In this document: positions 1 through 23,545 of the stretch, one piece after another | Position numbering within the stretch: the first letter of the stretch is position 1 | Layout of the letters: the number at the start of each line of letters is the position of its first letter | Assembly: GCA_030549335.1 (NCBI GenBank) | Contig: CM060189.1 | Coordinates: 32,821,001-32,885,000, forward strand | DNA length: 64,000 nt | Direction: 5' to 3' | Source: Pontederia crassipes | Lineage: Eukaryota; Streptophyta; Magnoliopsida; Commelinales; Pontederiaceae | Notes under the pieces: generated by a model | Seen by the model: only the letters and a program-made list of their open reading frames with translations | Databases searched by the model: none | Told to the model about the DNA's origin: nothing | Position numbers and translations under genes: made by a program

Positions 1-870
1 ATTATTTCACTAATGTTTTAATCATTAGTATTTGTGAGGCAGTGATGGTATTTTCTTTTATGTTGTTGAATGATCTTTATTCGTTTGTGTAAGTAATGCT
101 TCTCTACTAATATTAGTAGTTTACGAGCTCTATCAAGTTAGAGAAATTACTTGCGAGATTGGCAAAAGAGAGTCCAAAAAGTAAGAAGGAACGTGCTTGC
201 TTCATTTTTAATGATGAGTTCATTCTTTTTTAGCGTACTGTAGAAAAAGAAAGTTAAAAATACATGACTTATGTCAAGAGTTTAACTTGATATCCCATTG
301 CTCGCAAATTTACAAGTGTGTATTGTTGTTGACATCATTTTCTTATTGAAAATGTCCCTTAGTTGGAATAGGTAAAATTACCATTACCGATTTGACTGCT
401 CTAAGTGACAATAAATTTCTTGAAAGTGCGAATAAAATATATATTACATTCTCAAAATTCCAAAAAGTTATATTTCCACAAAAATTGATGCACATCTAAT
501 CGTCATTGTAGCATGCTTATTTTATATTGTTATGAATAAATATATTTAACTCATATATCTACTTAACATTTCATTGCCACATGAGAACATAATAGACCTG
601 AACCACATTAAAAGTATTTTTCAAGTACTTTTGTATGAAAAAAACAATCTAAATTCGTTTGGTGATGTTGGTGAACTTGTTTGCATTGATGACGACAATG
701 ATGTTGATAACGTATCAAAAATTAGAAAATATTTCAGGACCAACGATAGAATAACATTGTTGTCCAAAATATACATTCACAAAGTCCAATCAACTAAGCT
801 TTTGCAATGTGGAACTCTTAAGGGAGTAATAAATCAGACAAGCAAGATTCCTTGTGCTCCACAATGTCCC

Positions 871-1353
871 TCATACTACGAGGAAGGTGACACCAACAAC
901 TGTCATGATCGTGGCAAATGGGCCAAAAGCGAGATCACTAGTGGAGATGCCATTTGCGGTTGGAGAAATGAACTATTGTGCTGCCGGTCCTTAAGCAATT
1001 GGTCCCCGAGAAATATTACTTTGTTCCCAGTGTGAGATTAATCCTACAGGTGCGGCATCTGCTTGGGAGCCATCTCGCGGCAACGTCATGGAGCCTTGAG
1101 ATATGATTCTCTCAGCTGCTTTGGTGTCCCCATCTTCAAGTTTTTGACTCAATTCTTCCACGGAAGGCGACACTTGAGGTTTAAGTTCTCCGTTAGCTAT
1201 TGCTCTAACGTGGTCGGGGTCTCCTGTACGACCAGTTTCACCTTGCGTGTGCTTTATCATGGTCTCTATGGCAGTTTTGGTTTCCTCTTCGGTGTACGCA
1301 GCAACGTTCACAACAATAACAAACAAAGTTATAACACCCAATGCTCTTGCCAT
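871..1353 (-). pseudogene. Array copy A, small secreted protein, two nonsense codons
   Basis: The reading frame starts at the ATG at 1353 and has exactly the length of copy B (161 codons), with no indels. Codon 121, CAA in copy B, is TAA here (991-993), and codon 127, GAG in copy B, is TAG (973-975). The readable product is 120 residues: the signal peptide (MARALGVITLFVIVVNV) and the whole acidic middle domain are intact, but the C-terminal hydrophobic tail is cut off. If expressed, it would be secreted without an anchor; more simply, it is an early-stage pseudogene. The rest of the frame to 871 is still recognisable. Confidence 0.8.
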
Positions 1354-2980
1354 TCTAGAGAGAGCGAGGGCAAATGCGTGCTTGAGACGGAGAGAGGGAG
1401 AGAGAGCGAGAATACTAGATAGAATTGTTATTGTTCTTCTGTCTCATTGGAGTAGTAATAAAGGTGCACATATAGCGAGGAGATCTACGGTGTGCAAGAG
1501 CTAAGAATAACTTTCGCCTCTTTTTAGTCTTGAAGGAGAAATTTCTTTAAATAGTATGTAAAGGTTGGGAAGGTAACTAATATGTGATGAATATAGTAAG
1601 TAAACAAGAAATAAAGGCAATGTGGTTAGGAAATGCTATATGTAGGTGCCCAATTAATGATAATTGCTTTCGGTTAGGTTGAAGAACCTAAAATCATAAG
1701 AGAGGTAAATTTAAGGTAAGGGATTCAAATTAACAAATATATAAAAATTGATTGATCAAAAGCAAGGGTTCTTAACTAACAAATAAATAAGGTTTCTGTG
1801 AACTTAAATCTAGTTTATCATTTCTGACAACAAGTTAAGGACTTTCCATATTCGATCACAACTTCTTTCATGATGATTCTCAATACAAAGCATCCAGACG
1901 TAAAATGGAAAAAAACTTGAGACAAAAGAAAGATTAGCTAACTTAACATATGATCACAAATTGTGATCTTCTTTGAAACATAATTATGCATATATTATGT
2001 TTATAAATAAATCAATCACATCTGATAGTTTATGATGTGAACCCCAGTAATCATTGATCAATATTATGAATATACTCATGTGAACCCCAGTAATCAAACA
2101 CAAGTTACAACATAATGACTATGACACATATGACAATTGGATGCCAAACTTTAAAGAATAACAATTATTTCACTAATGTTTTAATCATTAGTATTTGTGA
2201 GGCAGTGATGGCATTTTCTTTTATGTTGTTAAATGATCTTTATTCATTTGTTTGAGTAATGCTTCTCTACTAATATTAGTAGTTTATGAGCTCTATCAAG
2301 TTAGATAAATTACTTGCGAGATTGGCAAAAAAGAGTCCAAAAAGTAAGAAGGAACGTGCTTCCTTTGTTTTTGTTAAAGAGTTCATTCTTTTTGCATTCA
2401 AGAGTTGAACTTGAGATCCCATTATTCGCAAATTTACAAGTGTGTATCATTGTTGACATCATTTTCTCATTGAATGTCCCTTAATTGGAATAGGTAAAAT
2501 TATCACTATCGATTTGACTGCTCTAAGTGACAATAAATTTCTTAGAAGTGTGAATAAAATATATCACATTCATAAAATTCCAAAAAGTTATATTTCCTCA
2601 TAAATTGATGCACATCTAAAGCATGCTTATTTTGTATTGTTATGAATAGATGTATTTAACTCATATATATACTTAACAATTCATTACCACTTGAGAACAT
2701 AATCGACCTGAACCACATTAAAAGTCTTCTTCGAGTACTTTTGTATGAAATAAACAATCTAAATTCATTTGGTGATGTTGGTGAACTTGTTTGCGTTGAT
2801 GACGACAATGATGTTGATTACGTATAAAAAAATAGAAAATATTTTAGGACAAATGATAGAATAACATTGTTGTGCAAAATATACGTACACAAAGTCCAAT
2901 CAACTAAGCTTTTACAATGTGGAACTCTTAAAGGAGTAATCAAACAGACAAGCAAGATTCCTTGTACTCCACAATATCCC

Positions 2981-3463
2981 TCATAGTACGAGGAAGGTGA
3001 CACCAACAACTGTCATGATCGTGGCAAACGGGCCAAAAGCGAGATCACTAGTGGAGATGCCATTTGCAGTCGGAGAAATGAACTCTTGTGCTGCCGATCC
3101 TTGAGCAATTGGTCCCCGAGAAATATTACTTTGTTCCCAGTGTGAGATTGATCCTACAGGTGCGGCATCTGCTTGGGAGCCGTCTCGCGGCAACGTCATG
3201 GAGCCTTGAGATATGATTCTCTCAGCTGCTTTGGTGTCCCCATCTTCAAGTTTTTTACTCAATTCTTCCACGGAAGGCGACACTTGAGGTTTAAGTTCTC
3301 CGTTAGCTATTGCTCTAACGCGGTCGGTGTCTCCTGTACGATCAGTTTCACCTTGCATGTGCTTTATCATGGTCTCTATGGCAGTTTTGGTTTCCTCTTC
3401 GGTGTACGCACCGATGTTCACAACAAGAACAAACAAAGTTATGACACCCAATGTTCTTGCCAT
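2981..3463 (-). CDS. Array copy B, putative GPI-anchored small secreted protein
   Basis: Intact intronless frame of 160 residues. Residues 1-19 form a signal peptide with a hydrophobic core (VITLFVLVV). The mature part has no cysteine and is rich in acidic residues, Lys, Ser and Thr, with predicted amphipathic stretches near 21-37 and 64-86 and an N-glycosylation sequon at Asn113 (NIS). Residues 131-145 are small and polar, then a hydrophobic tail (FATIMTVVGVTFLVL, 146-160) ends the protein, as in GPI-anchor signals; the cleavage site would lie near 133-139. The start is chosen because the same Met opens every copy. I do not recognise the family. Surface or wall localisation is inference from the two hydrophobic ends. 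Confidence 0.75.
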   Translation of the reverse strand: MARTLGVITLFVLVVNIGAYTEEETKTAIETMIKHMQGETDRTGDTDRVRAIANGELKPQVSPSVEELSKKLEDGDTKAAERIISQGSMTLPRDGSQADAAPVGSISHWEQSNISRGPIAQGSAAQEFISPTANGISTSDLAFGPFATIMTVVGVTFLVL

Positions 3464-3548
3464 TCTGGAGTGAGCGAGGGCAAATGCGAGCTTGAGATAG
3501 AGAGAGGGAGAGAGAGAGAGCGAGAATACGAGAGAGAATTGTTATTGT

Positions 3549-3592
3549 TCTTTTGTCTCATTGGAGTAGTAATAAAGGTACACATATAGGGA
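3549..3592 (-). promoter_or_regulatory. Conserved proximal promoter of array copies (copy B shown)
   Basis: Reading toward the gene, each intact unit has CCTATATG or CTATATG (here near 3583-3590), then about 20 bp later CTCCAATGAG, then a GA/CT-rich leader before the ATG at 3463. The TATA-like element lies about 120 bp upstream of the ATG. The same block recurs near 5915-5945 (copy C), 11440-11470 (copy D), 20955-20990 (copy E) and 1440-1475 (copy A). Its role is inferred from position and conservation. Confidence 0.45.
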
Positions 3593-3967
3593 GGAGATCT
3601 ACGATGTGCAAGTGCTAAGAATAACTTTTGCCTCTTTTTAGTCTTGAAGAAGAAATTTCTTAAAGTAGTATGTAAAGGTTGGGAAGGTAACTAATATGTG
3701 ATGAATATAGTGAGTAAACAAGAAATAAAGGCAATGTGGTTAGGAAATGCTATATGTAGGTGCCCAATTAATGATAATTCAAATAAATAAGGTTTCTATG
3801 ATCTTAAATCTCGTTTATCATTTATGACAACAAGAGTTAAGGATTTTCCATATTTCATCACCAAAGAACTTCTTTCATGATGATTCTCAACACAAAGCAT
3901 CTAGACGTAAAATGGAAAAAACTTGAGACAAAAGAAATATTAGCTAACTTAAACATTTGGTCATATG

Positions 3968-4204
3968 TATATGTATAAAAAAGACAACGAATCAAAACAA
4001 TTGCAGTTTTATGGGTGATATGGCGACAACGCAATGATTGCATTTTCAAGGGAGAAAAGTGTTATGTTGACAACATTCTAATAGTAGCTAGAAACTTGGC
4101 GAGTGAGTGGGCGAGATTATAAGATATGTTGTAATAGATACAAGTTTTTATAATGAATAAAAAATGAATGTGAGCACCTGACTCAAATCCTTTATCTTCT
4201 AAAA
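3968..4204 (+). mobile_element. 5'-truncated LINE insertion with 17-bp target duplication
   Basis: The insert lies between two copies of AAACATTTGGTCATATG (3951-3967 and 4205-4221), where other units have one copy. It ends in an A-run. A frame inside reads VIWRQRNDCIFKGEK, then LASEWARL and a stop, which resembles the C-terminal end of plant LINE ORF2. About 237 bp remain, so this is a typical dead-on-arrival L1-type copy inserted after the array was duplicated. The outermost A residues are ambiguous between poly(A) and target duplication. Confidence 0.8.
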
Positions 4205-5339
4205 AAACATTTGGTCATATGATCCCAAATTGTGATCTTATTTGAAACTTAATTATGCATATACTATGTATATAAAATAAATCAATCAGGTCTGGTAATT
4301 TATAATGTGAACATCCACTTATTTGTCCTTAGTAGTATAAATAACTCGTATTTCATTGATCAATATTATGAATATACTAATGTGAACCCGAATAATCCAA
4401 CGCAAGTTAGAACATAATGACTGTAACACATATGACAATTAGATGTCAAACTTTAAAGAATAAGAATTATTTCACTAATGTTTTAATCATTAGTATTTGT
4501 GAGAAGTGATGGCATTTTCTTTTATGTTGTTGAATGATCTTTATTCATTTGTGTGAATAATGCTTCTCTACTAATATTAGTAGTTTATGAGCTCTATCAA
4601 GTTAGAGAAATTACTTGCGAGATTGGCAAAAGAGAGCCCAAAAAGTAATAAGGAACATGCTTGCTTTGTTTTTAATAATGACTTCATTTGTTTTGCGACA
4701 GAGGTCTTGAGCGTAATGTAGAAAAAGAAAGTTAAAAATACATGTCTTATGTCAAGAGTTGAACTTGAGATCCATTGCTCTCAAATTTACAATCGTGTAT
4801 CGTTGTTGACATCATTTTCTCATTGAATATGTCCCTTAGTTGGAATAGGTAAAATTACCACTATCGATTTGACTGCTCTAAGTGACAATAAATTTCTTGG
4901 AGTGCGACAAAAAGATATCACATTCTCAAAATTCCAAAAATTTATATTTCCACAGAAATTTATACACATCTAATCGTCATTGTAGCATGCTTATTTTGTA
5001 TTGTTATGAATAAATATATTTAACTCATATATCTACTTAACAATTCATTGCCACATGAGAACATAATCGACCTGAACCACATTAAAAGTCTTTTTAGAGT
5101 ACTTTTGTATGAAAAAACAATTTAAATTCGTTTGGTGATGTTGGTGAACTCGTTTGCGATGATGAAGACAATGATGTTAATAATGTATCAGAAATTTGAA
5201 AATATTTCAGGACAAACGATAGCTTAACATTGATGTGCAAACTATTCGTTCACAAAGTCCAATCAACTAAGCTTTTACAATGTGGAACTCTTAAGGGAGT
5301 AATCAAATAGACAAGATTCCTTGTACTCCACAATGTCCC

Positions 5340-5822
5340 TTATAGTACGAGGAAGGCGACACCTACAACTGTCATGATCGTGGCAAATTGGCCAAAAGTG
5401 AGATCACTAGTGGCGATGCCATTTGCGGTCGGAGAAATGAACTCTGTTGCTGCCGGTCCTTGAGCACTTGGTCCTCGAGAAATATTACTTTGTTCTGAGT
5501 GCGAGATTGAACCTATAGGTGCGGCATATGCTTGAGAGCCGTCTCGCGGCAACGTCATGGAGCCTTGAGATATGATTCTCTCAGCTGCTTCAGTGTCCCC
5601 ATCTTCAAGTTTTTTACTCAATTCTTCCATGGAAGGTGACACTTGAGGTTTAAGATCTCCATTAGCTATTGCTCTAACGCGGTCGGGGTCTCCCGTACGA
5701 TCAGTTTCACCTTGCATATGCTTTATCATGGTCTCTATGGCTTTTTTGGTTTCCTCTTTGGTGTACGCACCAACGTTCACAACAAGAACAAACAAAGTTA
5801 TGACACCCAATGTTCTTGCCAT
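5340..5822 (-). CDS. Array copy C, putative GPI-anchored small secreted protein
   Basis: Intact 160-residue frame of the same length as copy B, differing at about 17 positions by eye. Changes are spread along the protein; both hydrophobic ends and the NIS sequon at Asn113 are kept. Charge-changing differences include E22K and K78E, and W109 of copy B is Ser here. The proximal promoter block and GA-rich leader are present upstream, so this copy looks functional. Biochemical role unknown. Confidence 0.75.
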   Translation of the reverse strand: MARTLGVITLFVLVVNVGAYTKEETKKAIETMIKHMQGETDRTGDPDRVRAIANGDLKPQVSPSMEELSKKLEDGDTEAAERIISQGSMTLPRDGSQAYAAPIGSISHSEQSNISRGPSAQGPAATEFISPTANGIATSDLTFGQFATIMTVVGVAFLVL

Positions 5823-7026
5823 TTTGGAGAGAGTGAGGGCAAATGCGAGCTTGAGCCAGAGGGAGGGAGAGAGAGCGAGAATACGAGAGAAAATTGGTAT
5901 TGTTCTTTTGTCTCATTGGAGTAGTAATAAAGGTGCACATATAGGGAGGAGATCTAGGGTGTGCAAGAGCTAAGAATAACTTTCGCCTCTTTTTAGTCTT
6001 GAAGGAGAAATTTCTTTAAGTAGCATGTAAAGGTTGGGAATGTAACTAATATGTGATGAATATAGAGAGCAACATGGTTAGGAAATGCTATATGTAGGCA
6101 CCCAATTAATTATAATTGCTTTCAATTAGGTTGAAGAACCTAAAATCATAAGAGATGTAAATTTAAGGTAAGGGATTCAAATTAACAAATATATGACAAA
6201 TGATGGATCAAAAGCAAGGGTTCTTAACTAACAAATAAATAAGGTTTTGTGAACTTGAATCTAGTTTATCATTTCTAGCAACAAGAGTTAGGACTTTCCA
6301 TATTCCAGCACCAAAGAACTTCTTTCATGACCATTCTCAAGACAAAGCATCCAGACGTAAAATGGAAAAAACTTGAGACGAAAGAAAGATTAGCTAACTT
6401 AAACATTTGGTCATATGATAACAAATTGTGATCTTCTTTGAAACTTAATTATGCATATATTATGTATATAAAATAAATCAATCACGTCCGATAATTTATG
6501 ATGTGAACATCCACTTATTCGTCCTTAGTAGTATAAATAACTCGTATTTCATTGATCAATATTATGAATATACTAATGTGAACCCGAATAATCATGTGAC
6601 ACATATGACAATTGGATGACAAACTTCAAAGAATAAGATAATTATTTCACTACTCTTAATCATTAATATTTGTGAGGCAGTGATGGTAGTTTCTTTTATG
6701 TTGTTGAATGATCTTTATTCTTTTGTGGATATAATGTTCCTTTACTAATATTAATAGTTTCTGAGCTCTATCAAGAGAGAAAGTTCGAGAAATTACTTGC
6801 GAAAGTGGCAAAAAAGAGTCCAAAAAATTAGAAGTATCGTGCTTGCTTTGCTATTAATAATGATTTTATTCCTTTTTCGACAAATTCTTGAGCTTACTGT
6901 GGAGAAAAGAACGTTAAAAATATATGTCTTATATCTTGAGTTGAACTTGAGATCCCATGGCTCGCAAATTTGTAATGTTGTTGCCATCATTTTCTCACTG
7001 AATATGTCCCTTTATCGGAGTAGGTA

Positions 7027-10000
7027 TGTCAAAACCCTGATTTAGATTGTGATTTAAATCAAAGTTCGCACCTCATTACGGACGATCAAAATTGCAAAAG
7101 ATTGCGTAAACGTAATAATTTTTTCTATAACATAAGCATATGGAATAAAAAATATCATTAAATAAACTGCACAATTTGTGATGATTAACAAACCAATTTC
7201 CTTAAGATTTACATTTCACAAAATGACTGCCTCTTACAAGTTATAAAATAACACTTATATAATGCATATAACAATTTCTCTCGACATTCTAACAAAATGA
7301 CACAAGAGTTACAACTCTCGTCAATAACATCAATTGAGTTACGCCCTGCAAAGATTATGAGCTTGCACAATCCAAGAAGTTATATTGATTTGAAAAATTT
7401 TAGAAACAAAACAAAAATAACTTAGTAAGTTGATAACCATCTAATTCTATTTGAAGAGACATGAAAAGATATGCAATAATTATAATATCACAATTAGTAT
7501 TTTCATCTATTTGAAAATAATATATACAATTTTCTAATCAAAATCATCACACTCCAATTGCAATTAATATCATTTAAATCATATCATACATATTTATGCA
7601 AATGCAAAACTCTCATATGAATGCACACACCAATTGGCTAATTTGTATAATCAATATATGGCTTTTAAAGGTGGCCCATATGGATTCTAAAGGTGGTACC
7701 CACCATGATTTCTCACGTGTAATACTTAGCTCCGCATGACACTTAACTCCATCTTATCTCATCTCATTTTTAGGGAGATGGATTGAAGTGGCTCCCTTCG
7801 TGATTTGTAGCATTTAACTCCAACCACCATATAGATAAGAAAGTCTTCTAAAGGTGGCCCATACGAATTCTAGAAGTGACTCTCATCATGATTTCTCATG
7901 ATGTACCACTTAGCTCCGTATGACATTTAGCTCCATCTTATATCATCTGGAGAACAGAATGATGCATTAGATTCTACAAGTGGCCTTTACAGATTCTAAA
8001 GGTGGCTCCTACCATAATTTCTCACGATGTAGCACTTAGCACCACATGAAACTTAGCGCCAACCATCATATGCATGATACAAATAGATAATATAACAATT
8101 GTATCTCAAATATGATAAATCATATGATCATTCAAACGGAATATAACATTTTATATAATCAATCCATAACATATCACATATGCTTTTCAATGTACAATTG
8201 ATCAATCATTCCAACATACTTTTCATAAGAATATGTCCAAAATATGTTCATTACATATAATAATTAATATCACGCCCAAATTCAAAAGGAGTGAATATAC
8301 AGTGTAGGAGAAACCAACTTACCTGACATATGCTTCTCCATTTCTTTTTCTTATCACTCATCTAACCCTATAGCAATAATATATATTATTATAGCACTTG
8401 ATGTGGATGCCAACATATATTACATAGATACAATAATGACCAAGGTTATATATTATTCATGCTGTCAATCTTATAGTTCGAGTAATTGATGAGTCACATA
8501 ATCATGACAAATTACATACTTTCTGAGACAAACTCCTAGATTTCATATGTATAATCAAATCTCATGAATCTAAGTTTATATGAAAGTAGAATGCAACGAG
8601 ATTAGCCAATAAAAATTTGAGACTTTATTTCCTTATGGTTGGTTCCCACAAAAATCAACATCCAACTTAGGTTTTCTGTTAATTCGGTGTTCTACTAGAT
8701 TAACTAACATTGATTGTATGAATTATATAAATTCTTAAATAAACCCTATTTTCATACTTTAAATTTTCTCTGAAAATAGACTTTCGAATGTCTAAATAAT
8801 AAAATTATTAGAGTCTAAATCATTATGAATTGATCACAATAAATTGTACAATGATATTCTCTAAATCCCATCTAGAGTGACTACCTGAGGCTTAATTAGT
8901 TACAAAGTAATTTATAACTTTGGCTAAAAATAACCTATTAAAATGACTCCAATTGTATATGAAGCTTGACATCAATAAATCTAAATTATGAAATAATTGT
9001 CATATATTAGATTTAATAGAGAATTTATAAAGTTGGGTAACAATTTCAATAGGCAGAACAACGAAACTTTAAAGATGAATACATAACATTTTCTCCAGAA
9101 ATTTCATTGACCTAATTTGAAATCTCAAAGAAACTAAACTCACAGGGGGGTGAGCATGCTTAATTTCATAATTTATATTGCCTTATATAAGTCTAAGAAA
9201 ATTCAGTAGTGACATATACTTTGATTACGTTTCAAAATTTAATGGACATAGATGTACCTATTGAGCTTTTATATTTATTTCTGCACAACTTATTTTTAAG
9301 TGATTTCAATTGGGTTAGAACCTTTGCTAATCTAGGTGCAAGACACATAAATTTCATATTTTAATCTTAAGTAAGATAGTAAAACATATGCTCATCTATT
9401 TACACATAACTCCCTATATAGAAATCATTTTGAGGTGATTCCAAAATCTGTAAAGATTTAGACTCATGTGAGTTCATGTTATATAAAGCTCATAATTTTT
9501 AAACGAGTATTTTACATTTACTAATAGCATGCAATTTTCGGTCAGACTAGAAACAACATATAAATGTTCAATTTATTACCTATTTAATTATATTGGATAA
9601 CTTAAAATGAGTGTACTATTATATTGTTCATGTGAATCTTGATCAATCAAAATTATTTTTAAACATAATTGTTTAATGATCTAAAATAATAAAATTACGA
9701 AAGATCAACCCTACAGACAACTTACCAGCTTTATTTTTCTTTTCTTGATCTCATCTCTAATCTTTCCCCTATTCCCCTGTTCGGCCAGCATCAAAAGATA
9801 TATAGAAAATCCCTTTTCTTTATGTCATTTCTCCTTCCTTCCCCTCTGGTTGGCAATAAAATAAAAGAAGACAATCTCTCTCTCTCTCTTTGAGAGAGTA
9901 GCTTTAACACACATGGTGGAGTTGGCAGCATGATGTGTCACTCGGTGGAGGGGTTAGAAGATGAAGTGAAGCATCTTACAATGTGGCCTGGAAGTGATAA

Positions 10001-10375
10001 GAACCAAAGGAGTGGACGGCATCTTACAATGTGGTGGTTATAAGATAATATTATACATTATTTATTGAGTGGATGGAGAGACACATCAGATAACGTGACT
10101 AACTGAACTCTATTCAAGTTAATGTTTATGTTATTTAGCTGTTAATTAATACTTGCAATACTTTAATTAGATAAAAAATTGATCAACAAAAAATAGTAAT
10201 TAGGTTAATTAATCATTATCTAAACAATTAGGTTAGGACTTCATAGCCTAGTTTAATTGGCTCCTTCTCACGATCACAAATCACTAAAATATTTATCTCA
10301 TAATAAGATTCCAATTAGCTTAATTAATATTTAATTTAGTTAATTACTTTAAAGGTAAAATGATGAGTTATTACA
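7027..10375. mobile_element. 3.35-kb LTR-type insertion (solo LTR) with AGGTA duplication
   Basis: The segment starts TGTCAAAACCC and ends GAGTTATTACA, and is flanked by AGGTA at 7022-7026 and 10376-10380. The uninterrupted site is seen in other units as GGAATAGGTAAAATTA. TG...CA ends with a 5-bp duplication are the hallmark of an LTR retrotransposon. I see no gag-pol frame, primer-binding site or internal direct repeat of the ends, so a solo LTR is the best reading; at 3349 bp it is a long one. It contains imperfect tandem repeats (see 7660-8065) and a CT-rich stretch near 9830-9895. Confidence 0.7.
7660..8065. repeat. Imperfect ~180-bp tandem repeats inside the solo LTR
   Basis: The phrases TCTAAAGGTGGCCCATA, GATTTCTCA, CACTTAGCTCC and CTCCATCTTAT recur about three times in the same order at roughly 180-bp spacing. 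This looks like an internal repeat of the LTR promoter region. No coding content is visible. Confidence 0.6.
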
Positions 10376-10874: not shown

Positions 10875-11351
10875 TCATACGAGGAAGGTTGCACCAACAA
10901 TTGTCATGATTGTGGCAAACGAGCCAAAAGTGAGCTCACTAGTGGCGATGCCATTTGCGGTTGAAGAAATGAACTCTTTTGCTGCCGGCCCTTGAGCACT
11001 TGGTCCTCGAGAAATATTACTTTGTTCCGAGTGTGAGATTGAACCTATAGGTGCGGCATCTGCTTGAGAACCATCTCGCGGCAATGTCGAGCCTTGAGAT
11101 ATGATTCTCTCAGCTGCTTCGGTGTCCCCATCTTCAAGTTTTTTACTCAATTCTTCCACGGAAGGTGACACTTGAGGTTTAAGGTCTCCATTAGCTATTG
11201 CTCTAACGCGGTCAGGGTCTCCCGTACGACCAGTTTCACCTTGCATATGCTTTATCATGGTCTCTATGGCTTTTTTGGTTTCCTCTTCGGTGTACGCACC
11301 GACGTTCACAACAAGAACAAACAAAGTTATGACAATCAATGTTCTTGCCAT
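10875..11351 (-). CDS. Array copy D, putative GPI-anchored small secreted protein
   Basis: Open frame of 158 residues from the ATG at 11351. It lacks one Met in the region equivalent to residue 89 and ends one residue earlier than copies B and C. The signal peptide is MARTLIVITLFVLVVNV; the tail (FATIMTIVGATFLV) is still hydrophobic and terminal. The frame stays open upstream to 11474, but the Met used by all other copies is at 11351, so the longer start is unlikely. The GA-rich leader is shorter than in B and C. Confidence 0.72.
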   Translation of the reverse strand: MARTLIVITLFVLVVNVGAYTEEETKKAIETMIKHMQGETGRTGDPDRVRAIANGDLKPQVSPSVEELSKKLEDGDTEAAERIISQGSTLPRDGSQADAAPIGSISHSEQSNISRGPSAQGPAAKEFISSTANGIATSELTFGSFATIMTIVGATFLV

Positions 11352-12503: not shown

Positions 12504-13997
12504 TGTGACGCCCCGATGTTGTACCCTATCCTAGTACGAGGTTGGGACACATCATATTCCAAGTACCTTGAAAAGCATTGTGGCAGGTGCCCAGAAGACA
12601 TTGGTTCTTGGGCAGAAGACCATCTCCAAGAGTTTGGGATGAGTGGAAAGGTCTTGGAACATGCATGGGATGTTGGGGTGCGCAAATGGCACCAACCGAC
12701 GACCAGTGAGGCATGAAGGTCTGTTACCATCCCAATATATACCCTACTGTACCAAATGAGTACCTGGGATGGAATATAGCATGTACATCGTGTATCCAAA
12801 GGATTCTTGTGGAGAAGAAGACTTTGGGATGAGTGGTTTGGCTTGGAACGTGCATGGGACGCTAGGGTGCGCAGGTGGCGCGTATCATCCCTGGACATAT
12901 CATATTGCCCCAAATGCTTCATTTGGGTGTAATATGGCGAGTAGGCTATATGGCCAAAGTATTCTTGATGAGAAGAAGTTTTTGGGACAGGGAGGCTTGG
13001 TAGGAAGTTGGGATGCCTTGGAACGTGAAGCAAGTACCAGATAGACTTGGTACCATGGCATAAGGCTTTGGGGCAGTGGAGCCAAGCAAGCTTTAGCAAC
13101 TTTAGATGACAGGGAGGTCATTCTCTTGTGAAGAGGACCGGAGGTGGTTGTGGTGGCAAGATAGTTACGGGTGGCAGTTATGGCAATGAGGTAGTTACTG
13201 ACGGTAGTTATGGCGGTGAGATAGTTACCGGCAAAAGTTATGGCGGCAAGGTAGTTATTGACAGTTACGAGTGACAGTTACCGACGATGACCATCATGCA
13301 CATCCGCCATGCTATGGCCCTAGTGTATCGAGGCACTAGGGACAAATGGCAACTGTAAAGCTGGCGGACAGGGTCGTAGGACGCCTTGGCATAAGTTTGG
13401 AACAGTCAGTTATGTCTGGGATGTGTTTGGGACATATGACACGCAGGTGGCACGTACCAATGCCTAGTTTGGCAATTACAGGTGGTACAATTACTCACAA
13501 TGAGAAATAGCATGGAGGCTATCTTTGGGCTGCGGTTGGGACATGTAGTGGCGGGAACCAATGGCCAGAAGGACTTGGGACCTTGGCGGGAAGGTTGGAG
13601 GCGCTCAAGACATACCCAGAGGCTTGGGATGGCGGAAAGACCATCCGAGGGTTTTTGAAGTGAAGAGGCACCAAGGGGTGCCTGGCCAAGGGGTTGCAGC
13701 ACTTGTATTTGAATTTAAAGGTCTAGCGGTTGCCATGATCCTCTTGTACACACAAGTAATGTGCCCCATTTTGGGCAGAGGGAGAGGAACCACATACCAT
13801 CATGGGACATAGTATGAATAAAGATATCTTTTCTCCCTTTATTTTTCTTGTCATGTCTATGTGCTTATGCATGAATATGTGGAGTTAGTACGAGAAGGTG
13901 CACTCTGCAGCATGTTCTTGGAGGCTGATTGAACGTCCAAGGAGGGGAGGTGCAGTGCCGCACGGGAGTTTTGGTGAGCAAAATCTTAGCCATGACA
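12504..13997 (+). repeat. 5' LTR of the non-autonomous element
   Basis: About 1494 bp from TGTGACG to CATGACA. It matches the 3' LTR over blocks such as GGGACACATCATAT, GTAATATGGCGAGTAGG, CATGCTATGGCCCTAGTG, GTAATGTGCCCCATTTT and TTTTGGTGAGCAAAATCTTA. It is GC-richer than the surrounding array, and its internal repeats generate many short spurious open frames. Confidence 0.75.
13140..13290 (+). repeat. Minisatellite in the 5' LTR
   Basis: Degenerate tandem repeats of about 30 bp built on GGCAGTTATGGCGGTGAG and TAGTTACCGAC. A shorter version is at 19050-19130 in the 3' LTR, so repeat number differs between the two LTRs. Confidence 0.65.
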
Positions 13998-14594
13998 AGT
14001 TGTATCAGAGCCAAGTTCAAGAAGGGAGTTGGAAAAATCCAACTTCAAAAAGGAAGTTGCAGGAACTTGGGGGCAATGATAGAACAACAAAAATAGATGA
14101 ATTCGACAAAGGAGAGCGGTTGGTGGTGACTCAGTTGCAGAAGATCATCACCCTGTGGAGGGTGTGATGCAAGGCACACTTCTACGACCTTGCACCAGTG
14201 GTGGCGTCCCAAGTGGGTGCACGGCAACGAATTTGATGGGGATCAGACCCATCAAGTGCAATTGCCACTCGACACTAAGTGGCCAAGACGCAGGATGCAA
14301 GAACCTGAGAGTGCAGAGGTAAGTCCAAGGCACGCGGGTGCCTTGGCTGTGGCAGACCACATCTACTACGGGCATGTCCTGAAAGAGAAAGGGCATTGCA
14401 GGGTGTTGAAGCATGCAGGCCAAGGAGTCTTACTTGGAATGGCCCTCATTAGGGCCATCCTTTATGAACCCACAGGGGCCGAAGCCAAAGAGGTCAGAGA
14501 TGTTGCTGGGTAACTTCTGGGTGAGTGCACACTACTAACCCTCAGACTTCAACAAAGAAGATTCACACAGGTCGGGCACACAACAAGGAGATCC
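13998..14594 (+). other. Internal region of the LTR element, no gene
   Basis: About 600 bp between primer-binding site and 3' LTR. Frames exist but none shows gag, protease, integrase or reverse transcriptase motifs. A purine-rich AACAAGGAGAT just before 14595 could be a weak polypurine tract. Confidence 0.55.
14000..14012 (+). promoter_or_regulatory. Primer-binding site (initiator tRNA-Met type)
   Basis: TTGTATCAGAGCC lies two bases after the 5' LTR end. It matches the usual plant primer-binding site TGGTATCAGAGCC, complementary to the 3' end of initiator tRNA-Met, except at the second base. It fixes the 5' LTR boundary and the element's orientation. Confidence 0.75.
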
Positions 14595-15030
14595 TGTCCT
14601 GGACAATGTTGGGACACATCATATGCCAGGTACCTTGAAGAAAAGGACACATGCAAGCAGTTGTTGTGGCAAGCGCACTAACCCAGAAGGTTCATGGGCA
14701 GAAGACCATCCCTAAGAGTTTGGGACGAGTGGAAATTTCTTGGTACATGCCTTGGAGGGGCGCATCACCGACGATCGAGCATGAAGGTCGGTTACCATCC
14801 CCTACTATACCAAACGGGTGTCTGGGATGGAATATAGCATGTACACTATGTAACCAAAGGATTCTTGTGGAGAGAAAGAGTTTGGGAGGAGCAGTTTGGC
14901 CTGGGACGTGCATGGGATGCTAGGGCGCGTAAGTGGCACGTAGCAACAGCCATGAAGGCATATCGTCCTAGGACATATCCTGCTGTCCCAAAAGCTTCCA
15001 GTGGTTGTAATATGGCGAGTAGGCTATATG
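14595..15030 (+). repeat. 3' LTR, left part
   Basis: Starts TGTCCTGG and follows the 5' LTR with many substitutions and small indels up to GGCTATATG, where the hAT element interrupts it. The other half resumes at 19016. Confidence 0.65.
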
Positions 15031-15116
15031 CAAGGGTGGAGGGACGTGCCTGCCGCCGCCTGCATGTGCAGACATTGACATTATATAAATTCCGATAGAG
15101 TAGAGCATACATATTG

Positions 15117-15190
15117 TCGTATTAGCTCAGATGGTGAAGGTGTTGTGAAACTGTGCACCCACCCAAAGTTTGAATCTGACAAAGAGCTTT
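15117..15190 (+). other. tRNA-like A and B boxes inside the hAT element
   Basis: TTAGCTCAGATGG (from 15122) fits the pol III A-box consensus TRGCNNARNNGG, and AAAGTTTGAATCT (15167) is a degenerate B box about 40 bp later. A run of seven T follows at 15188. This may be an old SINE head or tRNA pseudogene captured by the transposon. The B box differs from consensus at several bases, so activity is doubtful. Confidence 0.4.
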
Positions 15191-15881
15191 TTTTGTATTA
15201 TTTTCTAATATTTTGAGTCCAACTAGATTACACATGTTAAAAGCCCACTCCGAGCCTAGTTAGTATTTTTGTAAGTTTTTATTCTTTTTTATTGAAGGCC
15301 CACTCCAAGTCTAATAAGATTTATTATCCTAATTCAAAAAAAAAATTTCATTGTTTTGACTTTCTAACTCTATCCTATATAAGCATACCTGCAGCAAGCT
15401 TATTCTTCTATTGGGAGGAAATAAAATTCTATCCCATCATAATCCAAGAAAGAAGAAAATCTTATTTCTTAGCTCTTCAATCTTTTTGAGCTCAGGTATT
15501 ATGTTTCTAACTTTTAATTTATTTTTTACCTTAAGACTTATTTATTATTATCATAATCTTTTTGTTACAAACATAAGTACTTGTGATTTTTTATCATAAT
15601 TTATTAACATCATTTGCAATATGTATTAACTAGTAGTTTTCAACCTTTGTAATATATTTTAATAGTTATGCAAATTCATGATAATATTTCTTATTTTTAT
15701 TTTGAGGAATTAATCATTAATTTTCATAATTAATTTTTTATACATTATTTTTTGCTTTGCTCCACAATAATACAGTTCATCCATGGCCATATAATTTTAA
15801 CATATTTTTTTCTCAATAGCAAGATATTTTTATTTTTAAAATATATTTAAATTTAATATAAGAACTTTTTTGTAATTAATT

Positions 15882-18800
15882 ATGGTATTAGAAAAGTACT
15901 TTCAGAAAAGGCCACTTGCTTTTCATGATGATCAAGAAAAGTAAAAGGGAAATGATAATGACAATACTTTGAATGACTCATCACTAAGCGAAATCGAATT
16001 GATTTAAGTACTCTTCCATCCGATCCTGGAGAAAGAGAAAAAAATCTCAAGTTATCATTCTAATGGTCAAGATGAGATTCGAAGAATGTATTTATTAAGA
16101 GGTCCATTCCAACCTCAGAATTATACTTTTCCTCAAACAAACATAGGGGGTAAGTTGCATCGATTCAATCCCGATTGGTTCACACAATATCCGAATTGGT
16201 TAGAATATAATATTACAAAAGACGCAGCTTTTTGTTTGTGTTGCTATTTATTCAAATCTATTACCATAAATCAGAGCGGAGTTGATGCATTTGTCACCGA
16301 AGGTTATAATGGTGGAACAAAAAGCAAAGATTTGATATTCATGTTGGAGGAGTTGGAAGCCCTCATAATCAAGCAGTTACTAGATGTGAAGATTTAATGA
16401 AGCAAAATAAATCTATTCAAGTAGCTCTCAACAAGAAATCTATTCAAGTAAAAAATGAGAACCCTACCCATTTGCATGTCTCTTTAGATTGTATAAGATT
16501 TCTTTTACATCAAAGATTATCCTTTCGTGGACATGATGAATATGAAAATGCACAAAATAAAGGGAAATTTCGTGAACTCTTACAATTTCTTGTTGACCAC
16601 AATGAAGATATAGCTAAAATTATGTTGAAAAATGCTCCAAAAAATCACAAATGGTGTCACATGATATCCAAAAAGACCTTGTAAATTCTGCTGCACAAGA
16701 AACATCTAAACTTATATTGGATGATCTTCAAGATGATTTATTTGGAATTTTGGTCGACGAACCTCGTGACGTATCGAAGAAAGAACAAATGGCAGTTATT
16801 TTGCATTTCATAAATAAACAAGGCATAATTAATGAACTATTTCTTAGCCTTGTTCATGTCAAAGATACATGTGCTTCATCTCTTAAAGATGTAATTGATT
16901 CATTACTTTTTCAGCATAAGTTAAATCTATCACAAATAAGGGGTCAAGGTTACGGTGGAGCAAGTAATATGAGAGATGAGTTCAATGATCTGAAAAGTTT
17001 AATATTAAGAGAAAACAAATCAGCACATTATATTCATTGTTTTGCTCATCAACTTCAGTTAACTCTTGTTGTTGTCGTAAAAAATCATGTTGATGATGCT
17101 AGCCTTTTTAATTGGCTCACTATGCTCAGTAATTTAGTTGGAGCTTCTAGTAAGCGGCAAGATAAATTTCGAGAGATTCAAGCAGCTAAAGTAGCAGAAG
17201 CTTTAAGAATTGGTGAATTACAAAATGGTCGAGGATTAAATCAAGAAACTAACCTTAAAAGAGTCGGTGACACAAGATGAGGATCACATTATTATTAGGG
17301 ATGGCACCCCGACCCTGTTCGGGGTGGGGAACACCACCCCCGCTCCGACCCCGACGATCTGCCCCCGCCCCTCGAGCCCGCCCCGAATCCCCGATCCAGG
17401 GGAAATTTTATCCCCCGCCCCAATCCCCGCGGGGCTTGAATCCCCGCGGGGACCCCGAACTCCGCGGCTCGATCCTAGTTTGGACCGGATTAAATCGAAT
17501 TGAACTAATAAAAAATCGGAAAAAATCGAGTTGAACCGTATTTTTGGTTCAGTCAAAAAAATTTATTAATTTTTTTACTAAGAGATAATTTGATAACAAT
17601 TATTATTATAAATTTGGAAAATATCCAAGGTGGACTTTCTCCATAAACATTCAATATTGACCCATTAGTCTCCTCATTTATTTATACTTGTCTATTTACC
17701 CTCGCTTTCCTACTACTATCAATGTGGGACTATTGTTGTACACTCACTTTTTCTTTGGGGTGTGGGGATTCGGAGCCCCGCGGGGCGGCGGGGCGGGGAC
17801 AATTCCCCCCGCCCCGATCCCCGAAAAAGGGTTCGGGGACAATTTTCCCCCATCCCCGACCCCGCGAGGAAAAAACTCCCCGAGTTCGGGCCCCGATCGG
17901 GGATTCCCCGCGGGGCCCCGTAGGGGCGGGGAATATTGTCATCCCTAATTATTATATGCTTGTGAATTTAGAAGATATTTTTTAACTCTTCTTGAAGTAC
18001 TATAATTTGTCAAAAACGAAGCAATTCACTCTGATAAAAGAGCGGAAGCACACTTTCTTTTGAAATATTTACGATCATTTGATTTCGATTTTAGCTATAA
18101 AGTGATGCTATCCATATTGGGAATTACAAATGGTTTGTCATTATCATTACAAAGGAAAGATCAAGATATTCTAAATGCTACGATACTTGTTAAAGCGTGC
18201 AAAAAGGAGTCACAAAAAATGAGAGATGAGAAATGGAATTTGCTTATAACTGATACTTCTTTCTGTGAGAGGCATGAAATTCCAGTTCCTAAGTTGGATG
18301 ATATATTTGTTGCTGAAGGAAGATCAAAACGTAGAACCACAAAGATAACAAATCTACATCATTATCGAGTTAATTTTTTTGTGATGGTTATTGATATGCT
18401 GCTTCAAGAGCTTAATGATCATTTTAATTAAACAAATATGGAGTTGCTTCTTTGTGTAGCATGTCTTAATTTCGTTGATTCATTTCAAGCTTTTAATATT
18501 GAGAAACTGGTAAAGATGGGATGTTTCTATCCAAATGATTTTTCAGAAGCGGATTTGACAATGCTAAAGCATCAATTAGCAATATATATTGTGGATGTGT
18601 GTTCAGATGATCGTTTTCAAAGTTTGAGTGGACTTGCCGACCTTTCTCAGAAATTAGTGAAAAAAATATTATATATCTGTTGGTATATTTACTTCTAAAG
18701 TTGGCGTTGATTCTACCTGTAGCAACTGCAACAGTGGAGAGAGCTTTTTCTGCGATGAATATTGTAAAGACCAAATTACGAAATCGAATGGTAGATCAGT

Positions 18801-18901
18801 GGATGAATGATTGTTTGATAACTTATATTGAGAAAGATGTATTTTGTAATGTTAGCAATGATGATGTAATTGACATATTTCAAAAAATGAAATCTCGTTG
18901 A
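15882..18901 (+). pseudogene. hAT transposase, TTF-zinc-finger type (ZMYM1-like/DUF4371), decayed
   Basis: Consecutive frames give the ordered parts of a plant hAT transposase. They are a start region (MVLEKYFQKR at 15882), a TTF-type zinc finger near 16160-16260 (FNPDWFTQYPNWLEY then CLCCYLF), the DUF4371/RNase H-like core (ILVDE near 16750; FAHQLQLTL near 17043) and the C-terminal hAT dimerisation block (ATATVERAFSAM near 18722-18760). Damage includes a stop after FHDDQEK near 15940, frameshifts near 16338 and 16655, a stop at 17278-17280 where GDTRWGSH is expected, the second catalytic Asp changed (GYGGASN for GYDGASN near 16955), a 654-bp insertion at 17295, and about 100 missing residues after it. 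Not functional. Confidence 0.88.
17295..17948. mobile_element. GC-rich TIR element inside the hAT transposase
   Basis: The ends are TTAGGGATGGCA and TGTCATCCCTAA (one mismatch as inverted repeat), flanked by TTATTA on both sides (17289-17294, 17949-17954). The outer thirds are very GC-rich, with repeated GGGGCGGGG, CCCCGC and CGGGGA, and the middle is AT-rich. There is no coding frame. A duplication containing TTA could fit PIF/Harbinger, but it could equally be a 6-bp duplication of another group. Confidence 0.65.
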
Positions 18902-19015
18902 AATCAATTATCAAAATAATTTAAATTTATTTAAAATTTAAATGTTATTTATTTTAAGTGCTTTAATGACGGTGAACCCAGTCAAAATATTTCTTGCTCC
19001 ACCACTAGCTATATG

Positions 19016-19857
19016 GACAAAGTATTCTTGACCTGAGGACTGGAGTGGCGAGGTAATTACCGACGGTGGTTATGGCAGCGAGGTAGTTATCCGTGGCAGT
19101 TATGGTGGCAGGTGGAAGTTATAAGTGGTGGTTACCAACGATGGCGTCATGCACATCCGCCATGCTATGGCCCTAGTGTATTCAGGCACTAGGGATGACT
19201 CCTTGGCAGAAGTTTGGGACAGGTATAACTGGAATGTGTTTGGGATGTATAACGTGCAGGTGACACGTACCAATGCCCAGTTTGGTAGTTAGGTGGTAAC
19301 TATCCCAGGACATATCTACTCGTACCAAACAGTTACTCACAATGAGAGATAGCATGGAGGCTATATCCTAGGACAACAACTTGAGTGATTGGGACTTGCA
19401 ATGGCAGGAACTAACGGTCAGAGATAGTCCCACAACAACTTGAGTGATTGGGACGTGCAACGGTCAGAGATAGTCCCAGAGGCTTGGGAAGTGGGAAGAC
19501 CATCCAGGGGTTTTCGAAGTGAAGAGGCACCATGAAGGAATGCATGGCCAAGCACTTGTATTTAAAGTTAAAGGGCTGGTGGTTGCCATGACCCTCTTGT
19601 ATAAATAGTCGTGTAATGTGCCCCATTTTGGCCAGAGGGACAGGAACCATGAGAGGATGAATAAAGCTATCATCCCACCCCCCCCCCCCCCACCCCACCC
19701 CCACGTTATTGTTCTTATCATGTCTATGTGCTTATGCATGAATCACTGGAGTTAGTATGAGAAGGTGCACTCTACGCATGTTCTTGGAGGCTGGACATCC
19801 GAGGGGAGGTTTAGTGCCGCACAAGGATTTTGGTGAGCAAAATCTTAACCCGTGACA
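19016..19857 (+). repeat. 3' LTR, right part
   Basis: Continues the LTR alignment from GGACAAAGTATTCTTGA to the terminal CCGTGACA. It includes a C-run with interruptions near 19675-19703 and the block GTAATGTGCCCCATTTT shared with the 5' LTR. Several deletions make the two 3' LTR pieces about 1.28 kb in total, against 1.49 kb for the 5' LTR. Confidence 0.7.
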
Positions 19858-20408
19858 CATGGCTCACAAATTTACAAGCGTGTAACGTTGTTGCCATTAT
19901 TTTCTCATTGAATATGTCCCTTAGTGGGAATAGATACAATTATCATTATCACAATAAATTTCTTGGTAGTGCGACAAAAAGATATTACATTCTCAAAATT
20001 CCAAAAAAAAATTATATACCCACAGAAATTGATGCACATCTAATCATCATTGTAGCATGTTTTTTTTGTGTTGTTATGAATAATTCTATTTAACTCATAG
20101 TTAACAATCCATTGCCACATGAGAACATAATCATCTTGAACCACGTTAAAAGACTTCTTCTAGTACTTTTGTAAGAAAAAAATAATTTAAATTCGATTGG
20201 TGATGTTAGTGAACTCAATTATGATGATGATGCCAATGATGATAATAACATAATTGAAATTAGAAAATATTTCTAAACAAATGATAGAATAGCATTGATG
20301 TGTAAAATATACGTTCACAAAGTCCAATCTTCTAAGCTTTTACACTGTGGAACTATTAAGGCAGTAATCAAATAGACAAGCAAGATTCTTTGTACTACAC
20401 AATGTCCC

Positions 20409-20880
20409 TCATAGTACGAGGAAGATGACACCAACAACTGTCATGATCGTGGCAAATGAGCCAAAAGTGAGATCACTAGTGGCCATGCCATTTGCAATTG
20501 GAGAAATGAATTCTTGTGCTGCCGGTCCTTGAGCACTTGGTCCTGAGCAATAGTATTTTGTTGCGAGTGTGAGATTGATCCTACAGTATATGCTTGAGAG
20601 TCGTCTCGCAGCAACATCGCGGAGCCTTGAGATATGATTCTCTCAGCTTTGTTGGTGTCCCCATCTTCAAGTTTTTTACTCAAATCTTCCACGAAAGGCG
20701 ACACTTGAGGTTTATTGTCTCCATTAGCTACTGCTCTAATGAGGTTAGGGTCTCTGGTAGGACCAGATTCCCCTTGCATATGCTTTATCATGGTCTCTAT
20801 GGCTTTTTTGGTTCCTCTTTGGTGTACGCACTGACATTCATAACAATAACGAACAAAGTGACACCCAATGTTCTTGCCAT
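20409..20880 (-). pseudogene. Array copy E, small secreted protein, frameshifted
   Basis: Starts at the conserved ATG (20880) with MARTLGV. One A is lost in the stretch coding EEETKKA (near 20810), shifting the frame; the body from MIKHMQGE is open again in another frame, and a second one-base loss near 20545 shifts it before the C-terminal tail. One in-frame codon (Ile8 region) is also missing. The glycosylation sequon NIS is lost. Upstream promoter-like sequence remains. Confidence 0.8.
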
Positions 20881-22550
20881 TCTAGAGAGAACGAGGGCAA
20901 ATGCAAGCTTGAGACGGAGAGAGGGAGAGAGAGAATTGTTATTGTTCTTCTATCTCATTGGAGTAGAAATAAATGTGTACATATAGGGGGGAGATCTACA
21001 ATGTGCAAGAGATAAGAATAACTTTCACCTCTTTTTAGTCTTGAAGGAGAAAATTCTTTAAGTAGTATGTAAAGATTGGGAATAAACAAGAAATAAAGAC
21101 AATGTGGTTAGAAAATGCTATGTATAGGCACCCAATTAATGATAATTAGTTTTAGTTAGGTTGAAGAACCCAAAATCATAAGAGAAGTAAACTTAACAAA
21201 AAGGATTCAAATTTACAAATATATAACAAATGATCAATCAAAAGCAAGGGTTCTTAACTAACAAATAAATAAGGTTTATGTGAACTCAAAATCTCATTTA
21301 TCATTTCTGATAACAAGAGTTAAGGTCTTTCCATTTTCCATCATCAAAGAACTACTTTCATGATAATTCTAAAGATAAAACAACAAATAGTAAAAAAGAA
21401 AAAACTTTAGACGAATGACAGATTAGCTAACTTAAATATTTGGTCATATGATCACAAAGTTAATTGTGTATATATAATATATAAAATAAATCAATCACAT
21501 CTGATATTTTATGACATGAGCATCCACTTATTCTTCCTTACTAGTATAAAGAACTCATATTTCATTAGTCAATATTATGAACATACTAATGTGAACCCGA
21601 CTAATCAGACACAAGTTACAACATAATGATTGTGACACATATGACAATTGGATGTCAAACTTCAAAGAATAAGATAATTATTTCACTACTATTAATCATT
21701 ACTATTTGTGAGGTAGTGATGGTATTTTCGTTTATGTTGTCTAATGATCTATATTTTATTGTGAGAATAATGTTTCTTCACTAATATTAGTAGTTTTCGA
21801 GCTTAATCAAGAGAAAAAGTTAGAGAAATTGCTTGCAAACTTGGCAAAAAAGAGTCCAAAACTAAGAAGGAATGTGCTTGCTTTGTTATTAATAATGAGT
21901 TCATTCTTTTTGCGACAGATGTCTTGAGCATACTATAAAGAAAAGAAAGTTAGAAATACATGTCGTATATCAAGAGTTGAACTTGAGATTCCATGACTCA
22001 CAATTTTACAAGTGTGTAATGTTGTTGACATCATGTTCTCACTGAATATGTCCCTTAGTGGGAATAGGTAAAATTATCACTATCGGATTTGACCGCTCTA
22101 AGAGACATCAAAGTTCTTGGTAGTGCGACAAAAAGAGATTACATTCTCAAATTCCAAAAAAAATACATATACACAAAAATTGATGCACATCTAATCGTTA
22201 GTGTAGCATGCTTTTTTTGTTGTTATGAATAATTATTTTCAACTCATATATCTAGTTAACAATCCATTGCCACGTGAGAACATAATCATCCTGAACCACA
22301 TTAAAAGACCTTCTAGTACTTTTGTAAGAAAAAAATAATTTAATTCGTTTGGTGATGTTAGTGAACTCGATTACGATGATGATGATAAAATGTAATAGAA
22401 ATTAGAAAATATTTCTAGACAAATGATAGAATAGCATAGATATGTAAAATATATGTTCACAAAGTCCAATGATTGAAGTTTTTACAATGTGGAACTCTTA
22501 AGGCAGTAATCAAATGGACAAGCAAGATTCTTTGTACTCCACAATGTCCC

Positions 22551-23171
22551 TCATCACCAACAATTGTCACTAAAAACTTCAACAGAATCACTCTATTTCT
22601 CTTTTACATGATTTAAGCTCAGCTCACAAGAAGAAGAAGGAACAAATTTATCATTGTAGCTCAAAGAAGTTCAATGTGCTTCAATAGTGAGTTTTTTTAT
22701 AGTATAAAGATCTAAATGTTGTGCTTTGGCCTTCTTTATATTTGATCTTCAATAAAATGGCCATTGTGAAGTTTGATATAAATTTGGGATAAATTTGTTT
22801 TTGTCAACACTTGAGTGGGCATCCTCTTTCGATAGGGGGTCGTTTATTTAACTTTGCAGCAGATATCCATTCCCTAGTAGCGGTTGATGTGGTGAATTTT
22901 GTTTTGATGGTAATAATATAGGGGATTTGTCTAAATATTGTTATAAATATGAAACTCAGTGAAAATAATGCAATGCAAGTGATGCACTTATTGAAAAATA
23001 CAATAGCTTAAAATATCAGGGAAAAATAGAGACATGACACAAAACATGAACATTGAAAATCGTGTGTTTTAAAAATTTATACTCAGAGCATAAATCAAAG
23101 CTTCAAGTTCATATGTATCAATATGATCACAACAAGAACAAACAAAGTTATGAAACCAATGTTCTTGCCAT
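22551..23171 (-). pseudogene. Array copy F, gene with middle replaced
   Basis: Only the two ends of the gene remain: the last codons and 3' flank (22551-22570, CCAACAATTGTCA), and the start with the first part of the signal peptide (about 23130-23171). The start has a two-base loss after MARTL that gives a stop. Between them, 22571-23125 is unrelated AT-rich sequence of about 555 bp in which I recognise nothing. Confidence 0.6.
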
Positions 23172-23545
23172 TCTAGAGAGATAAGAGAATTGTGATTGTA
23201 GTTTTGTCTCCTAGGAGTAGAAATAAAGGTGTTTCTTATAGCGAGGACTTCAACAAATGCATGAGCTGGAAATAGGTTTCACCTTTTTGTAATCATTAAG
23301 AAAAAAATTTAATTAGTATGTGTATTGTCATCAAGGCTTGCAAGGTAGTAATATGTGATGAAGATGGTGAATAAACAAGAAATACAAAACGATTATCAAA
23401 TATTATATATAGGCATTCATCAAATCATAAGTTGAGGAATTTAAAATCATAAGAAACTAAATTCTATTTCTACGAACATAAAATCTCATATATCAATTCA
23501 AATTACAAGAATTAGGTACTTTCCATTTCTTTCATGAGAAAACTG

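What the first reader, a model, noticed from the sequence alone, without database searches (positions are those of the whole stretch)
1..23545. Lineage-type tandem array of unrecognised small GPI-like secreted proteins
Six units carry versions of one intronless ~160-aa gene. Seen directly: signal peptide, cysteine-free mature domain with two probable amphipathic helices, one NIS sequon, and a terminal hydrophobic tail. I recognise no family. Recent segmental amplification of a small surface or secreted protein, with copies at every stage from intact to dead, is the pattern of a fast birth-and-death family (recognition, defence or reproductive proteins). That role is inference only.
Basis: partly seen in the sequence, partly recalled or inferred. 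Interest (0 to 1): 0.75.

Follow-up and report, generated by a model that had tools for sequence, protein, structure and literature searches.

The report
Tandem array of plant surface-protein genes
A plant chromosome carries a run of copies of one small, apparently secreted and surface-anchored protein gene that matched no family in the libraries searched; the run has been growing and decaying separately on two matching chromosomes, a familiar pattern of fast gene turnover.

Summary
In window 1-22.6 kb five units carry one intronless ~160-aa gene: A (two stops), B, C, D (open), E (frameshifted); a sixth unit has lost its coding part, and the array runs at least 2.5 kb further left. A whole-genome protein search (31 rows) gives 22 family places by my grouping: 9 open, 13 broken. 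The 9 open copies lie on C7 (3) and C8 (6), which look homoeologous here (88.5% identical over 10.5 kb). Each also has an older cluster with no open copy found; one diverged remnant lies on C3. C8 has its own recent burst of ~2.16-kb units, two of them differing at 1 of 2160 sites. The frame is under moderate selection: codon-model dN/dS 0.48-0.54 over the 9 open copies, 1.0 rejected (2 delta lnL 7.2-10.0); flanks collect indels, the open frames almost none. Birth-and-death turnover is supported. Pfam, NCBIfam, PDB sequences and a prokaryote scan gave no relative. Plant proteomes, GPI predictors and RNA-seq were not available: anchoring is rule-based inference, and role and lineage restriction are untested.

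The parts
874..1353 (-). Copy A, broken: stop codons at codons 121 and 127
2981..3463 (-). Copy B, open, 160 aa
5340..5822 (-). Copy C, open, 160 aa; its positional counterpart on C8 (43772762-43773219) is broken
10875..11351 (-). Copy D, open, 158 aa from the homologous start (one codon deleted, one residue shorter at the end; an in-frame upstream ATG would give 195 aa)
20412..20880 (-). Copy E, broken by frameshifts
21677..22554 (-). Sixth unit, downstream part only, coding region missing
23122..23413 (-). Remnant of the 5' flank (23184-23413) with a doubtful signal-peptide scrap (tblastn E 1.4)
16008..18901 (+). Degenerate hAT-type transposase (DUF4371 and hAT dimerisation domains) in the extra DNA between units D and E

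Best explanation
A plant multigene family of small cell-surface proteins that turns over by tandem duplication and decay. Each ~2.1-2.3 kb unit carries its own upstream region, a pyrimidine-rich 5' leader, one intronless gene and its 3' flank. The product is most likely secreted through an N-terminal signal peptide (cut after residue 19), exchanges a C-terminal hydrophobic tail (about 144-160) for a GPI anchor, and leaves a ~115-120-residue, charged chain with one NIS sequon, nearly always free of cysteine, on the outer face of the plasma membrane. Unequal crossing-over between units makes new copies; stops, frameshifts and deletions remove others; selection keeps some frames open. After the C7/C8 split the arrays went separate ways: C7 kept B, C, D and has four broken copies; C8 amplified one ancestral copy to six and has two broken copies, one of them the positional counterpart of C. 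SHOWN: the arrays, the copy states, the selection on the frame, the main tree groups and the homoeologous layout. INFERRED from sequence rules: secretion, anchoring, glycosylation. INFERRED from pattern only: a dosage- or diversity-sensitive surface role (defence or reproductive recognition).
For: Repeats and copies. dN/dS over 9 open copies 0.484 (MG), 0.524 (MGK), 0.542 (GY), with omega=1 worse by 5.0 lnL (MG), 4.0 (MG2K) and 3.6 (GY, kappa grid 2-4); interpolated 95% range on a coarse grid about 0.34-0.82. Indels, 5' flank plus about 450 columns of 3' flank against coding: C-D 12 in 1111 vs one 3-base loss in 477; B-C 9 in 986 vs 0 in 480; B-D 12 in 999 vs one 3-base loss in 477. Tree: A, B, Z together (100), six C8 copies together (100), the two groups joined (98). 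C8 units 4 and 5 differ at 1/2160, 3 and 4 at 7/2158. Head KD 1.9-2.7, last 14 residues KD 2.1-2.5, five proteins; the 9 open copies all keep head and tail. CTATATGT and a similar leader upstream in the five copies printed.
Against: No transcript evidence. dN/dS near 0.5 is moderate constraint; B against the open copy C8_1 is 0.71, and pairs with broken copies reach 1.28. Picking open copies leans toward low values, and the broken copy A also shows no coding indel against B. No positive selection was shown, as many recognition families would have. GPI signal judged by rule, not by a predictor. No confident fold. Deeper tree nodes are weak (32-63), and copy Y is poorly aligned at its 5' end and sits on a very long branch.
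Confidence: 0.7

Rival explanations
1. A once-functional family now drifting to extinction: the open copies are simply those not yet hit, and the array is a neutral tandem repeat that happens to carry a gene.
For: 13 of 22 places are broken (my grouping); no open copy was found in the two older clusters; C8 copies 1 and 3 differ as much in the gene (14/480) as in the flanks (16/698, 20/797).
Against: omega=1 rejected over the 9 open copies under three codon models; frame-respecting indels; a crude simulation gives 1.2% (5% divergence, 1% indels), 0.3% (5%, 1.5%) and 0.15% (8%, 1.5%) for one copy staying open by drift, but 10% at 3% and 0.5%, so it says little for the young C8 copies.
Confidence: 0.17
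2. A secreted single-pass membrane protein, or a freely secreted one, rather than a GPI-anchored protein.
For: The tail is strongly hydrophobic and no GPI predictor was run.
Against: The protein ends on the hydrophobic run with no basic stop-transfer residues after it, the usual look of a GPI signal (recalled rule).
Confidence: 0.2
3. A peptide-hormone precursor whose active part is the segment GPSAQGPAxxxFISP, one of the stretches kept towards the older paralogues.
For: That segment is recognisable in the array, in the decayed cluster and, in part, in the C3 remnant.
Against: Known linear plant peptide families usually sit at the extreme C-terminus (recalled); here a hydrophobic tail follows. 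The helix-like stretch KPxVxPxVEELxxKLEDGD matches better across the C3 copy. In passages of a peptide-hormone review (PMC11756074) the string SGPS was not found in the held part.
Confidence: 0.08

Closest known systems
GPI-anchored plant surface proteins as a class
   Same: N-terminal signal-like head, C-terminal hydrophobic tail
   Different: No sequence match in the libraries searched; anchoring not shown
Arabinogalactan proteins / chimeric AGPs
   Same: Probable secretion and GPI tail, a few AP/SP/GP dipeptides
   Different: Only 36-38% P+A+S+T in the mature part; charged, helix-prone sequence instead
LORELEI/LLG co-receptor proteins
   Same: Small, GPI-type, a surface role in reproduction (passages of PMC11756074)
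   Different: No conserved cysteines here; LLGs have a conserved cysteine pattern (recalled)
Birth-and-death tandem families of secreted plant proteins
   Same: Tandem units, intact and dead copies, homoeologue-specific expansion
   Different: The protein family is unrecognised in the libraries searched

Membership tests
GPI-anchored proteins | Cleavable N-terminal signal peptide | tested here: inconclusive
   Rule-based: hydrophobic head (KD 1.9-2.7) ending VGA/IGA in the five proteins measured; no predictor available
GPI-anchored proteins | C-terminal hydrophobic tail with no following basic residues | tested here: met
   Hydropathy for five proteins; the same ending seen in all 9 open copies
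GPI-anchored proteins | GPI attachment in vivo | not testable with these tools
   Needs PI-PLC release or mass spectrometry
Arabinogalactan proteins | At least about 50% P+A+S+T in the mature protein (recalled threshold) | tested here: not met
   36-38% in the five proteins measured
LORELEI/LLG, LTPG, early-nodulin-like (cysteine-patterned) | Conserved cysteine pattern (recalled) | tested here: not met
   No cysteine in the five proteins measured; one open C8 copy has a single Cys at residue 69
Any Pfam-A / NCBIfam family | HMM score above curated cut-off | tested here: not met
   Pfam: 4 proteins (best E 0.069) and 4 (none); NCBIfam: 9 members (best E 0.056); all below cut-off
Linear peptide-hormone precursors (PIP, SCOOP and the like) | Conserved peptide at the extreme C-terminus (recalled) | tested here: not met
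   C-terminus is the hydrophobic tail in the 9 open copies
Birth-and-death tandem gene family | Intact and broken tandem copies with lineage-specific gains and losses, frame under selection | tested here: met

The most novel reading that the evidence does not exclude
An undescribed family of essentially cysteine-free, GPI-anchored plant surface proteins whose copy number and sequence are being reshaped independently on two homoeologous chromosomes, acting as a fast-evolving recognition factor in defence or pollen-pistil interaction.
Probability: 0.15. Interest if true: 0.65.

Novelty: new member of a known kind. Interest (0 to 1): 0.4.

Why it matters
If expressed, the locus is a clean natural experiment: the same small gene array, present on both homoeologues, kept three copies of mixed descent on one and grew from one ancestral copy to six on the other. 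That would let dosage, gene conversion and homoeologue loss be compared in one plant. The protein would add an unrecognised family to the plant cell surface. Fast-turnover orphan families are common in plant genomes (general knowledge), so without expression or phenotype it is of moderate interest.

Tried and rejected
Known family by profile: rejected. Solved structures by profile: two chance-level hits, E 0.2 and 1.1. Fold comparison was not attempted because the model was too poor (mean pLDDT 41). Prokaryotic origin or contamination: 85 pattern matches, none a relative. A wider family elsewhere in the genome: only C3, plus one C11 row at E 4.55 that I read and dropped as chance. AGP and cysteine-patterned GPI families rejected on composition. 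Organism: from genome size I guessed Zantedeschia, searched (listing) and saw passages of PMC12884619; these speak of two old duplications before the Araceae species diverged, which does not fit the C7/C8 similarity, so the guess was dropped and the species stays unknown. Paper searches for such a family gave nothing to the point (no paper; listings of 14 and 13); one search used a peptide string as a term and was a poor query. The codon-model test was repeated after the draft because the model first used has a third parameter; simpler models agree.

Full report
WHERE IT LIES. The window is G000:C7:32821001-32885000 of a 1.13-Gb, 43-contig genome. Gene pieces in the window (ABC-transporter domains at about 28-31 kb, a DUF630/DUF632 gene at 59.8 kb) suggest a flowering plant (inference). 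Species not identified.

THE OBSERVATION. Direct-repeat and self-BLAST analysis confirm tandem units of about 2.1-2.4 kb, with extra DNA between C and D (about 7.0-10.4 kb) and between D and E (about 12.5-19.8 kb); the second stretch contains a degenerate hAT transposase. Copy states: A two in-frame stops, B and C open at 160 aa, D open at 158 aa with one codon deleted, E frameshifted, sixth unit without coding sequence. Two further broken copies lie just left of the window (C7:32818526-32820148).

THE WHOLE-GENOME PICTURE. A protein search of the genome with copy B returned 31 rows. I grouped them by place: C7 array 7 copies (9 rows), C8 array 8 copies (11 rows), older cluster on C7 3 places (5 rows) and on C8 3 places (4 rows), C3 one place, and C11 one row at E 4.55. 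The C11 row I dropped after reading its frames. Two of the older-cluster places have weak protein E-values (0.126 and 0.214) but are also found by DNA. That leaves 22 places, 9 of them open: B, C, D on C7 and six on C8 (43798814, 43800900, 43803070, 43805237, 43807402, 43809567). The tool warns that such counts are lower bounds. Searches with the two C3 pieces found no further place.

HOMOEOLOGY AND HISTORY. C7 and C8 align at 88.5% over 10.5 kb around the older cluster, in inverted order. On both, a young array and an older cluster lie about 200 kb apart. Pieces of the older cluster are 33-64% identical to copy B in protein, so the family split before the C7/C8 split. In the tree (19 sequences, mostly coding region plus flanks) the two older-cluster copies used pair across the homoeologues (100, 100), with branch sums of about 0.09 and 0.07. 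A, B and the left-hand copy Z form one group (100), the six C8 copies another (100), and the two groups are joined (98). Deeper nodes are weak (32-63), and the badly aligned copy Y has a branch of 0.5. By position, C7 copy C matches the broken C8 copy at 43772762-43773219 within one 4.5-kb alignment. Thus different copies survived on the two chromosomes. The C8 burst is recent: units 4 and 5 differ at 1 of 2160 sites, units 3 and 4 at 7 of 2158. Unit 2 departs mainly in its 5' flank and unit 6 in its 3' part, which may partly lie beyond the repeat's end. This is compatible with unequal crossing-over or conversion. An assembly duplicate for units 4/5 cannot be excluded.

IS THE FRAME SELECTED? 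Nei-Gojobori dN/dS among the open window copies: C-D 0.28, B-C 0.38, B-D 0.37; with the open C8 copy 1: B 0.71, C 0.45, D 0.38. Over all 45 pairs of the ten copies in that call, broken ones included, values run from 0.28 to 1.28. The highest, all with broken copies, are B against broken C8 copy G 1.28, B-E 1.15, A-E 1.09 and H-E 1.04. Codon models over the 9 open copies give omega 0.484 (MG, lnL -1139.29; omega=1 -1144.29), 0.524 (MGK, -1129.71) and 0.542 (GY, -1140.10; omega=1 at best -1143.72 on kappa 2-4). MG2K gives -1129.71 free and -1133.68 at omega=1. So 2 delta lnL is 7.2 to 10.0. With the two nearly intact broken copies added it is 8.5 (MG2K) and 11.1 (MG). Indels against flanks: C-D 12 in 1111 flank bases, one 3-base loss in 477 coding bases; B-C 9 in 986 against 0 in 480; B-D 12 in 999 against one 3-base loss in 477. 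The broken copy A likewise shows 0 coding indels against B and 11 in the flanks. A rough simulation puts the chance of one copy staying open by drift at 0.15-1.2% for 5-8% divergence with 1-1.5% indels, but 10% for 3% and 0.5%. Constraint is therefore real but moderate. Positive selection was not shown; no site test was run.

THE PROTEIN. Head hydrophobic (KD 1.9-2.7), probable cut after residue 19 by rule; mature part 36-38% PAST with no cysteine in the five proteins measured. One open C8 copy has a single Cys at residue 69. One NIS sequon; tail KD 2.1-2.5, ending on the hydrophobic run. Variable positions among the 9 open proteins: 5 of 19 in the head, 14 of 69 in residues 20-88, 16 of 48 in 89-136, 8 of 24 in the tail. 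Amphipathic moments exceed shuffles at p 0.009 to 0.081 for four hand-chosen segments of copy B. AlphaFold with six window rows gave mean pLDDT 41 and pTM 0.22, so its helices (22-36, 46-53, 65-73, 77-86, 143-159) are no more than a hint. The segments best kept in the C3 remnant are KPxVxPxVEELxxKLEDGDxxxAxRIISQGS and a weaker GPSAQGPAxQ. The C3 remnant itself is frameshifted between these two and its 5' part was not found in the 1.2 kb read.

WHAT IT IS NOT. No Pfam, NCBIfam or PDB-sequence family, no prokaryotic relative. Not an AGP by composition, and not a cysteine-patterned GPI family. Paper searches (none; 56, 57: listings) held nothing on such a family by title or abstract start.

VERDICT. 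A genuine, probably partly live, fast-turnover tandem family of small, probably GPI-anchored plant proteins, expanding separately on two homoeologues. The pattern is a known kind; the protein family is unrecognised in the libraries searched; its role is open.

Noticed in passing
window 16008-18901: Degenerate hAT-type transposase (DUF4371 and hAT dimerisation domains) inside the extra DNA between units D and E.
   Followed up: partly
window 63283-63434: A ~150-bp repeat about 90-97% identical at several fetched places on C7 and C8; I recall it as looking like the plant Au SINE, not tested.
   Followed up: no
window 56461-56531: tRNA-Cys (GCA) gene, minus strand.
   Followed up: no
about 110-125 bases upstream of the start in copies A-D and one C8 copy: Conserved CTATATGT (TATA-like), a pyrimidine-rich leader and an upstream ATG that is in frame with the gene in D but not in B or C.
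   Followed up: no
L012 359-5363 (C7:32811359-32816363) and C8:43788295-43795295: A second set of repeated DNA beside the array on both homoeologues, pieces 71-82% identical; part of L012 reads like a retroelement gag (my reading, not tested).
   Followed up: no
window 28228-30965: ABC-transporter gene pieces (ABC_tran and ABC2_membrane) on the minus strand, ABCG type by my reading.
   Followed up: no
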